From Coprobacillus sp. (GTDB lineage: Bacteria > Bacillota_I > Bacilli_A > RFN20 > CAG-826), in assembly GCA_021203745.1 (NCBI GenBank), contig JAJQAP010000034.1:4317-39424 (forward strand): a stretch of 35,108 nt of DNA, written 5' to 3'. The position numbers and the translations under genes were made by a program. This document shows positions 21,138 to 29,084 of the stretch, one piece after another. The notes under the pieces were generated by a model, which was given only the letters and a program-made list of their open reading frames with translations, did no database searches and had not been told where the DNA came from. Position 1 is the stretch's first letter. Every line of letters starts with the position of its first letter.

Positions 21138-21154
21138 TCACTATAAAAATAAAA

Positions 21155-21180
21155 GAGTCTCCTAATTGGGGACTTTTTTT
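21155..21180 (+). terminator. Rho-independent terminator, potentially bidirectional
   Basis: AGTCTCC-TAATT-GGGGACT stem followed by T7; the reverse strand has TCTTTTATTTTT after the stem. Confidence 0.85.
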
Positions 21181-21182
21181 AT

Positions 21183-21249
21183 GATGGTAATTTATTAACC
21201 GCTGCACCATCAACGCGGGCTACTTCTCGTCTCCTTATCTCTAAGGATT
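21183..21249 (-). ncRNA. Small RNA, copy A: GNRA hairpin plus H-type pseudoknot, paralogue of copy B; candidate type III antitoxin RNA
   Basis: Minus strand AATCCTTA-GAGA-TAAGG...CCGC-GTT-GATGGT-GCA-GCGG-(L3)-ACCATC; about 86% identical to 21922-21987; own promoter at 21256-21283; runs into the terminator at 21155. Confidence 0.7.
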
Positions 21250-21255
21250 GTTATT

Positions 21256-21283
21256 ATTTTAACATAAGCAAGAAAAATATCAA
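21256..21283 (-). promoter_or_regulatory. Sigma-A-type promoter of RNA copy A
   Basis: Minus strand TTGATA - 16 nt - (TGT)TAAAAT; 6-nt gap to the conserved RNA block. Confidence 0.7.
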
Positions 21284-21291
21284 CAAAAATA

Positions 21292-21813
21292 TTACTTTAA
21301 TTTCCTATCCAACAAAATTTTCTCTAATCTATTTATATCGGGTTGAGTGCTCACAAATTTAAATCCATTTTTAAGCAAAGAAATCACTTCTCTTGCTTGA
21401 TTGACAATTGTTTGGGTCTCATATTCGTCAAAAGTAAAAGGTCCATGATTAATTAAATAATATCGAACAATATAATCTCGTGAAACTGGAAACATATCTT
21501 GAAACAATAGGACACTCTCTCTATCAGCATAATGAACAATCTTCATACCTAGCATGAATTTGCTGAGTATTTCCTTTGCATCGCTCCTTGAACTATTTGT
21601 CCATTTATAAAACGTTTTTCTATAATACCTTTTATATTTATCCACTTTACTGGAAAGCGGTATCATCCAATATAAGTCAGTAGATGAATCATAAATAGCA
21701 AGGTAGTATGGTCTCAAACCACCTGGATGATTTTTAACTAGATATGGGTCGTTAACATCGATGAAAAACTGATCACTAATGACATATAAATAACCTGTAA
21801 CTAATTTTAACAA
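21292..21813 (-). CDS. CptN/ToxN/AbiQ-superfamily type III toxin endoribonuclease (candidate)
   Basis: 173 aa; motifs GGLRPYYLAIYDSSTDLYWMIPLSSKVDKY and DRESVLLFQDMFPVSRDYI resemble CptN-type toxins; TTG start with RBS AAGGAGG; preceded on the same strand by a pseudoknot RNA with a terminator U-tract. Confidence 0.72.
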   Translation of the reverse strand: MLKLVTGYLYVISDQFFIDVNDPYLVKNHPGGLRPYYLAIYDSSTDLYWMIPLSSKVDKYKRYYRKTFYKWTNSSRSDAKEILSKFMLGMKIVHYADRESVLLFQDMFPVSRDYIVRYYLINHGPFTFDEYETQTIVNQAREVISLLKNGFKFVSTQPDINRLEKILLDRKLK

Positions 21814-21915
21814 TATGTTTTTGCCTCCTTATGGTTAAGAGAAATAAAAAACTCCTCTATTTACTATAAGTAGCAGGGTAAAGCAAAAAACTTCCGAAAA
21901 TTTTTTAAAAATTAG

Positions 21916-21987
21916 AAAAAAGATGGTAACTTATTAACCGCTGCACCATCAACGCGGGCTGCTTAACTCCCCTTATTTCTAAGGATT
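21916..21987 (-). ncRNA. Small RNA, copy B, upstream of the toxin: GNRA hairpin, H-type pseudoknot and U6 tract; candidate type III antitoxin RNA
   Basis: Minus strand AATCCTTA-GAAA-TAAGGGGAGTTAAGCAGCCCGCGTTGATGGTGCAGCGGTTAATAAGTTACCATC-TTTTTT; own promoter; paralogue of copy A. Confidence 0.75.
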
Positions 21988-21993
21988 ATCTAT

Positions 21994-22021
21994 AGTGTAC
22001 CATAAACTAGTCACAAGTCAA
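21994..22021 (-). promoter_or_regulatory. Promoter of RNA copy B and, by read-through, of the toxin gene
   Basis: Minus strand TTGACT - 16 nt - (TGG)TACACT; same spacer length and same 6-nt distance to the RNA block as copy A. Confidence 0.7.
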
Positions 22022-22084
22022 GAGTGGGCTTCCCCTTTCTTGTTTTCTCTTTATAAATACCTTTATAAAGAATATACTAAAAGT

Positions 22085-27713: not shown

Positions 27714-29084
27714 ATGCCAGAGCTTCCGGAAGTTGAAACAATTAAAAACATCCTTAATGATATCCTTCCTGGGAAGGTTATTTCTTCTGTCGAGATAAAC
27801 CGAGAGAAATCAGTCCTAGGAGATCCTAAAACATTTATGGATTCATTAAAAGGTAAGAAGATATTAGAGATAGGAAGAAAGGGAAAATATCTTATATTCT
27901 ATCTAGCGGATGATTATGTCATTATTTCTCATTTAAGAATGGAAGGTAAGTACTATTTAGAGGATGAAAAAGAGGATGATACTAAATATGCTCGTATTGT
28001 CTATCATTTCACGGATGGCTCTAAATTATGTTTTGATGATTCCCGTTCATTTGGAATTACAAAACTCACTAAAAAAGACCAATATCTTGATGAAAAGGAA
28101 TTAAAAACACTAGGATTAGAACCCTTTTCAATTGAAAATGTCGATTACTTAATCGAGAAAACAAAGAATATAAGCACGCCAATAAAGTCAACATTACTTG
28201 ACCAATCAATAATCGCAGGACTCGGTAATATATACGCTGATGAAGTTCTCTTTTTATCGGGAATTAATCCAATGGAAAAAGCAAAAAAACTTACAAGAGA
28301 AGACTGGGAAAAAGTCCTTACTAATTCAATAGACGTTTTAAATAAAGCAATTAAAGAAGGTGGATCTACAATTAGATCATATCACCCAGGAAAAGGGATA
28401 GATGGTAACTTCCAAACCCAGTTAAATGTCTATGGTAAAAAGGGAGAACCTTGTCCTAAATGCGGACACAAATTGTATTATAAAAAAATAGGTGGAAGAG
28501 GCTCGACATTCTGCCCGAGATGCCAAGCAAAAAAGAACCCACCAATTTACTATGGATTAACCGGTCCGCTCTCCGCGGGTAAATCGACAGTTTTAGATAT
28601 TTGTAAGAAGCTAGGGGTAGCAACACTATCCGCCGATGATATTGTCCATGAACTATATAAAAACGGAAAAGTGATTAAAAAGATTAACCAAATAACCTCG
28701 CAAAATTTTGAAGGTGAAGTTAATCGAGAACTTTTACGAGATTACTTAATTGAAAATCCTCGTAAAGTGAAGCAAGTCGATAATTATATTCATCCTCTTG
28801 TTAAAGAGAGAATCATTAGTGAAATGACTCGTAATAAAAAGGAGAAAATGGTCGTTGAAGTTCCACTACTCTTTGAAGCGGGTTTTGATAATCTCTTTGA
28901 TTACAATATTGCTGTGTCTATAAACGAAGATTCTAGAAAGTCACATATAAAAACTAGTGATTTATTAAAACTTAATAAAAAAGATAATGATTTTTACACT
29001 TCTCAAGCGGATATCATTATCGAAAATAATTCAGATTTAAAGAGTCTTGAAAAAGAAGTTAGCGATAAGCTCCTTCAAGATTAA
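27714..29084 (+). CDS. mutM-coaE: Fused formamidopyrimidine-DNA glycosylase (MutM/Fpg) - dephospho-CoA kinase (CoaE)
   Basis: N-terminal MPELPEVETIKNIL, C4 zinc finger CPKCGHK...FCPRCQAK, then directly IYYGLTGPLSAGKSTVLDICKKLGVATLSADDIVHELY (CoaE P-loop) in one uninterrupted frame. Confidence 0.93.
   Translation: MPELPEVETIKNILNDILPGKVISSVEINREKSVLGDPKTFMDSLKGKKILEIGRKGKYLIFYLADDYVIISHLRMEGKYYLEDEKEDDTKYARIVYHFTDGSKLCFDDSRSFGITKLTKKDQYLDEKELKTLGLEPFSIENVDYLIEKTKNISTPIKSTLLDQSIIAGLGNIYADEVLFLSGINPMEKAKKLTREDWEKVLTNSIDVLNKAIKEGGSTIRSYHPGKGIDGNFQTQLNVYGKKGEPCPKCGHKLYYKKIGGRGSTFCPRCQAKKNPPIYYGLTGPLSAGKSTVLDICKKLGVATLSADDIVHELYKNGKVIKKINQITSQNFEGEVNRELLRDYLIENPRKVKQVDNYIHPLVKERIISEMTRNKKEKMVVEVPLLFEAGFDNLFDYNIAVSINEDSRKSHIKTSDLLKLNKKDNDFYTSQADIIIENNSDLKSLEKEVSDKLLQD

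What the first reader, a model, noticed from the sequence alone, without database searches (positions are those of the whole stretch)
21183..21249. Second, orphan copy of the antitoxin-like RNA immediately downstream of the toxin gene
21183-21249 and 21922-21987 are about 86% identical. Both lie on the minus strand in direct orientation, each with its own promoter (16-nt spacer, extended -10, exactly 6 nt between -10 and the conserved block). Substitutions fall only in predicted loops and linkers (tetraloop GAGA vs GAAA, the linker between hairpin and pseudoknot, one L3 base); all three stems are unchanged. The downstream copy has no toxin after it and ends at the shared terminator. It could raise antitoxin dosage, buffer toxin expression, act as an anti-addiction copy, or be the other half of a mobile/duplicated unit.
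Basis: partly seen in the sequence, partly recalled or inferred. Interest (0 to 1): 0.72.

Follow-up and report, generated by a model that had tools for sequence, protein, structure and literature searches.

The report
RNA antitoxin genes flanking a toxin
In an uncultured bacterium, a toxin gene appears to sit under a DNA-uptake (competence) type switch, with separate small antidote-RNA genes before and after it; the supposed 'orphan' second copy is in fact the position found in every closely related locus we could examine.

Summary
The repeat is real: two 66-67 nt minus-strand units, 90% identical. Each has its own extended -10 promoter, a 5' hairpin and an H-type pseudoknot, and all 7 differences fall outside the stems. 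The gene between them is a CptN toxin (CptIN family, type III toxin-antitoxin), so the units are CptI-type antitoxin RNAs. 'Orphan duplicate' is the wrong reading. All four CptN loci of this subclade (three in this genome, one in a sister species) carry a stand-alone antitoxin unit 32-45 nt after the toxin stop codon. Upstream units vary from none to three or more. None of 35 other CptN loci with downstream sequence has such a unit; almost all have ordinary repeats upstream. Between copy B and the toxin lies a bipartite motif found at 14 sites in this genome (1 in the reversed control), including all three cptN genes, comFA-comFC, dprA, recA and ssb. In the sister species the toxin leader instead matches that species' own comFA promoter. 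Best reading: a split type III system with constitutive antitoxin sRNA genes on both sides and a toxin on its own competence-type promoter. Copy A probably also ends the toxin mRNA with an antidote. Expression and toxicity are untested. New variant of a known kind.

The parts
21183..21249 (-). Copy A: downstream stand-alone antitoxin unit. 5' hairpin 21246-21233, S1 21218-21215 with 21202-21199, S2 21211-21206 with 21188-21183; begins 45 nt after the toxin stop codon (hairpin)
21922..21987 (-). Copy B: upstream stand-alone antitoxin unit. 5' hairpin 21984-21971, S1 21957-21954 with 21941-21938, S2 21950-21945 with 21927-21922
21916..21921 (-). U6 tract directly after the S2 strand of copy B (pseudoknot seems to double as terminator); absent after copy A
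21256..21283 (-). Promoter of copy A: TTGATA - 16 - TAAAAT with TG extension
21994..22021 (-). Promoter of copy B: TTGACT - 16 - TACACT with TG extension
21292..21813 (-). cptN: CptIN-family type III toxin (predicted endoribonuclease), 173 aa, TTG start
   Evidence: NCBIfam NF047359 116.6 bits; PDB 4RMO E=3.5e-27
21865..21895 (-). Competence-type promoter motif GGAAGTTTTT-N6-ACCCTGCTACTTATA in the toxin leader, shared with comFA, dprA, recA and ssb of the same genome
   Evidence: G000:C79:26181-26211 = window 21865-21895
21150..21179 (+). Terminator of the DHH gene; weaker on the minus strand, where it would end copy A and toxin transcripts

Best explanation
This is a CptIN-family type III toxin-antitoxin locus in a split arrangement peculiar to this genus. 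SHOWN from sequence: the antitoxin is not one precursor of tandem repeats but separate 64-72 nt sRNA genes, each with an extended -10 promoter, a 5' hairpin and one CptI-type H-type pseudoknot, in most units running straight into a U-tract. They lie on one or both sides of the toxin, and the downstream position (copy A here) is the constant one. SHOWN: the toxin leader carries a motif shared with the competence genes of the same genome. INFERRED: antitoxin RNAs are made constitutively and bind CptN directly. INFERRED: the toxin is transcribed from its own competence-type promoter rather than by read-through from the antitoxin promoter. INFERRED: transcription from that promoter runs through copy A, so each toxin mRNA carries an antitoxin pseudoknot in its 3' UTR and ends at or just after it, tying antidote supply to toxin transcription, while copy A's own promoter keeps a constant supply. 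Copy A is therefore a regular working part, not a relic.
For: Toxin identity. Pseudoknot layout matches the published E. rectale CptI repeat (PMC4627078), which also shows that a single repeat is fully antitoxic. Downstream unit in 4/4 subclade loci, hairpin 32-45 nt after the stop, and in 0/35 other CptN loci with downstream sequence. Locus L014 has only the downstream unit. Hairpin and S2 sequences differ between loci while pairing is kept; all six S2 pairs differ between the window and the other loci. Positioned extended -10 promoter in 9/9 units. RNA model and blastn find units only at CptN loci (two weak extra hits lack a pseudoknot). Leader motif at 14 sites, 1 in the reversed control, in front of cptN x3, comFA-comFC, dprA, recA, rpsF-ssb. 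In G071 the split cptN leader matches that species' comFA promoter over 42 nt (33/42, 0 of 1000 shuffles), while its canonical cptN does not. The four split toxins are separated from the 32 others by a branch with 99/94 support.
Against: No expression, toxicity or binding data. Only four split loci in two draft genomes of one genus. Copy A lacks the U-tract, and its minus-strand terminator is imperfect. Model R1 finds copy B only weakly (E=0.04) and misses copy A, because the window S2 sequence has diverged. The G071 leader does not match its dprA promoter significantly. The three other split toxins score 73-87 bits, just under the NCBIfam cut-off of 90. The sigma factor was not identified. 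Two S1 stems in L016 units hold a mismatch.
Confidence: 0.72

Rival explanations
1. Canonical coupling: copy B is the only working antitoxin, its promoter also drives the toxin by read-through past the pseudoknot/U-tract, and copy A is a decaying duplicate.
For: Published CptIN/ToxIN loci use one promoter and read-through. Copy A has lost its U-tract.
Against: Copy A keeps all stems and its promoter. The downstream unit is present in 4/4 loci, and L014 has no upstream unit at all. The toxin leader holds a separate promoter-like motif.
Confidence: 0.15
2. The downstream unit serves mainly as the 3' end (terminator and stabiliser) of the toxin mRNA; its antitoxin role is secondary.
For: Fixed distance after the stop codon and a U-tract after the pseudoknot in the other downstream units.
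Against: Copy A itself has no U-tract, and each downstream unit has its own promoter and 5' hairpin, which a terminator does not need. Not exclusive of the main reading.
Confidence: 0.08
3. The units are an unrelated mobile repeat (MITE/REP-like) or an insertion hotspot product without antitoxin function.
For: The DHH-dnaE gap is a variable site: empty in G027, other toxin-antitoxin genes in G050 and G071.
Against: No dispersed copies; units track CptN genes, and their stems keep pairing while changing sequence.
Confidence: 0.03

Closest known systems
CptIN of Eubacterium rectale (type III toxin-antitoxin; PDB 4RMO; PMC4627078)
   Same: CptN toxin by sequence; antitoxin an H-type pseudoknot with two short stems and an A-rich crossing loop; one repeat is enough for antitoxicity in the published system
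   Different: There: two 45-nt tandem repeats in one precursor upstream. Here: single-pseudoknot genes with their own promoters and 5' hairpins on both sides, a 15-20 residue insertion in the toxin, and a competence-type promoter for the toxin
ToxIN / AbiQ (type III; review PMC5086642)
   Same: Protein toxin neutralised by pseudoknot RNA
   Different: Known loci are bicistronic from a single promoter with tandem repeats and an intergenic terminator
AbiF-RCd22 of Clostridioides difficile (PMC12373285)
   Same: Small RNA antitoxin that acts in trans on the toxin protein and ends before the toxin gene
   Different: Unrelated toxin; RCd22 and toxin share one promoter; RNA upstream only
toxTA of Haemophilus influenzae (PMC6957337)
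   Same: Toxin-antitoxin pair placed in the competence regulon
   Different: Type II (protein antitoxin), both genes under the competence promoter, Gram-negative host

Membership tests
CptIN type III toxin-antitoxin | Toxin belongs to the CptN family | tested here: met
   Window toxin 116.6 bits vs cut-off 90; 4RMO E=3.5e-27. The other split toxins score 73-87
CptIN type III toxin-antitoxin | Antitoxin RNA is an H-type pseudoknot with two stems and an A-rich long loop | tested here: met
   S1, S2 and loops located in both copies; pairing kept across nine units. By sequence only, no probing
CptIN type III toxin-antitoxin | Antitoxin is a tandem repeat array in one precursor upstream of the toxin | tested here: not met
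   Single units with own promoters, also downstream
[quoted passage not shown]
   U-tract after copy B fits a terminator, but a separate promoter-like motif precedes the toxin; no transcript data
CptIN type III toxin-antitoxin | RNA neutralises the toxin; toxin cleaves its RNA | not testable with these tools
   needs expression and in vitro assays
Competence regulon | Promoter motif shared with competence genes of the same species | tested here: met
   comFA-comFC, dprA, recA, ssb and three cptN in G000; comFA of G071
Competence regulon | Induced by the competence regulator or sigma factor | not testable with these tools
   no expression data; sigma factor not searched for

The most novel reading that the evidence does not exclude
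Probability: 0.4. Interest if true: 0.8.

Novelty: new variant of a known kind. Interest (0 to 1): 0.63.

Why it matters
Type III systems are described as one-promoter operons in which read-through sets the toxin level. Here the two halves seem to be separately controlled, and the toxin is tied to competence. I found no description of a competence-linked type III system, or of antitoxin RNA genes downstream of the toxin, in the held open-access library; Blower et al. 2012, the main catalogue of type III loci, was not held. It gives a testable link between RNA antitoxins and natural transformation.

Tried and rejected
Rfam: no family matches the window at gathering score, and none matches the units in related loci even at E<=1. 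PADLOC and Pfam: no match for the toxin; only NCBIfam and PDB name it. Phage records: no CptN relative. Plasmids: three distant relatives only. Viral contigs: one clear CptN relative plus four distant ones; no copy of the unit pattern. Dispersed-repeat idea: rejected. First leader pattern had the wrong spacing (7 instead of 6) and found nothing; corrected. A 24-nt leader comparison for G071 was not convincing; a 42-nt comparison was. The 42-nt length was chosen after seeing the alignment, so its 0/1000 is somewhat optimistic. Structure prediction was not run, as sequence already gave 4RMO.

Full report
Observation. The two blocks 21183-21249 (A) and 21922-21987 (B) are real direct repeats on the minus strand, 90% identical with all seven differences outside the three stems (p=0.012). 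Each has an extended -10 promoter with a 16-nt spacer. The genome draft (961 kb, 92 contigs, 81% complete) holds no other copy; a 19-nt third hit lies inside an open reading frame.

What lies between. The 173-aa minus-strand ORF at 21292-21813 is a CptN toxin (NCBIfam NF047359, 116.6 bits; PDB 4RMO, E=3.5e-27). Read on the minus strand, the units give a 5' hairpin and then an H-type pseudoknot with S1 CCGC/GCGG, S2 GAUGGU/ACCAUC and an A-rich crossing loop, the layout of the E. rectale CptI repeat printed in PMC4627078. That paper shows a single CptI repeat to be fully antitoxic and CptI-CptN pairs to be specific.

Comparative architecture. I collected 41 distinct CptN loci and scanned both flanks with a pseudoknot descriptor. 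The usual pattern is one to three tandem repeats upstream; a few loci gave no descriptor hit. Four loci differ: the window, C40 and C56 of the same genome (L016, L014) and C15 of a sister species (L005). All four have a stand-alone unit downstream whose hairpin starts 32-45 nt after the stop codon. Upstream units number one (window), two (L016), at least three (L005, with an assembly gap) and none (L014). Of 35 other loci with downstream sequence none has such a unit; pseudoknots found downstream in L038 and L048 belong to a second adjacent cptN. Chance for 4/4 against 0/35 is about 1 in 80,000 (one over the ways to choose 4 of 39). The four toxins share an insertion of about 15-20 residues and lie apart from 32 others on a branch with 99/94 support; the placing of one very long row, L021, is unsure.

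The units as genes. Hairpin and S2 sequences differ between loci with pairing kept: all six S2 pairs differ between the window and the other loci. Nine of nine complete units have the positioned extended -10 promoter. In all but copy A the pseudoknot is followed at once by a U-tract, so it may also act as terminator. A covariance model of the units finds them only at CptN loci in the four genomes of the genus; two weak extra hits show no pseudoknot. The model detects the diverged window copy B only weakly and copy A not at all.

The toxin's own promoter. The three split cptN genes of this genome share a leader motif GGAAGTTTTT-N6-ACCC(C/T)GCTA(T/C)TTATA. A relaxed pattern gives 14 sites here and 1 in the reversed control, and none in three sister genomes. 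Besides cptN the sites precede recA, dprA and ssb (named by NCBIfam), a PriA-like helicase followed by a ComF-type phosphoribosyltransferase (taken as comFA-comFC; TIGR00201 79 bits, below its cut-off), a C39-peptidase protein, a ToxN-family locus and some unknowns. These are classic competence genes (compare the SigH regulon of L. sakei, PMC3364868). In sister species the motif has another sequence: in G071 the split cptN leader matches that species' comFA promoter in 33 of 42 positions with equal spacing (0 of 1000 shuffles), while its canonical cptN does not. In G027 a distant CptN-like gene (L021) shares its leader with that species' comFA and dprA (42 of 48, shuffle maximum 33).

Site. 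The DHH-dnaE gap is empty in G027 (about 80 nt). In G050 it holds a RelB-family antitoxin gene, and in G071 a DUF6088-like gene and a further gene resembling that RelB. So it is a variable site that takes up different toxin-antitoxin genes; that concerns the whole locus, not copy A alone.

Mechanism and limits. Shown: architecture, conservation of the downstream unit, shared leader motifs. Inferred: constitutive antitoxin supply, competence-linked toxin expression, and the toxin mRNA carrying copy A in its 3' UTR. Precedent for a toxin-antitoxin pair in a competence regulon exists in H. influenzae (type II, PMC6957337). None of it has been tested at the bench, and only four loci in one genus support the split arrangement.

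Noticed in passing
G000 sites listed (L070-L083): A genome-specific bipartite promoter motif in front of comFA, dprA, recA, ssb and cptN genes; its sequence differs in sister species. Resembles a SigH-type -35 (own knowledge).
   Followed up: partly
L076 1500-2343 (G000:C4): A ToxN-family locus (PF13958, 127 bits) with about three repeats upstream and a weaker copy of the competence-type motif before them, so all four type III toxin loci seen here lie near such a motif.
   Followed up: partly
L021 1435-1884 minus (G027): Distant CptN-like gene (24% identity) with no pseudoknot nearby but with that species' competence-type leader; in the same neighbourhood (rluD, rnhC) as L005.
   Followed up: partly
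window 21138-22084 and L111-L113: The DHH-dnaE gap is a variable site: CptIN here, RelB-type in G050, DUF6088-like in G071, empty in G027.
   Followed up: partly
L010, L012, L023, L024, L025, L029 upstream of cptN: In several canonical arrays the last CptI pseudoknot runs straight into a U-tract, so the pseudoknot may double as terminator there too.
   Followed up: no
L038 and L048: Two cptIN systems in tandem, each with its own repeats.
   Followed up: no
window 27714-29084: Apparent fusion of formamidopyrimidine-DNA glycosylase with dephospho-CoA kinase (read by eye).
   Followed up: no
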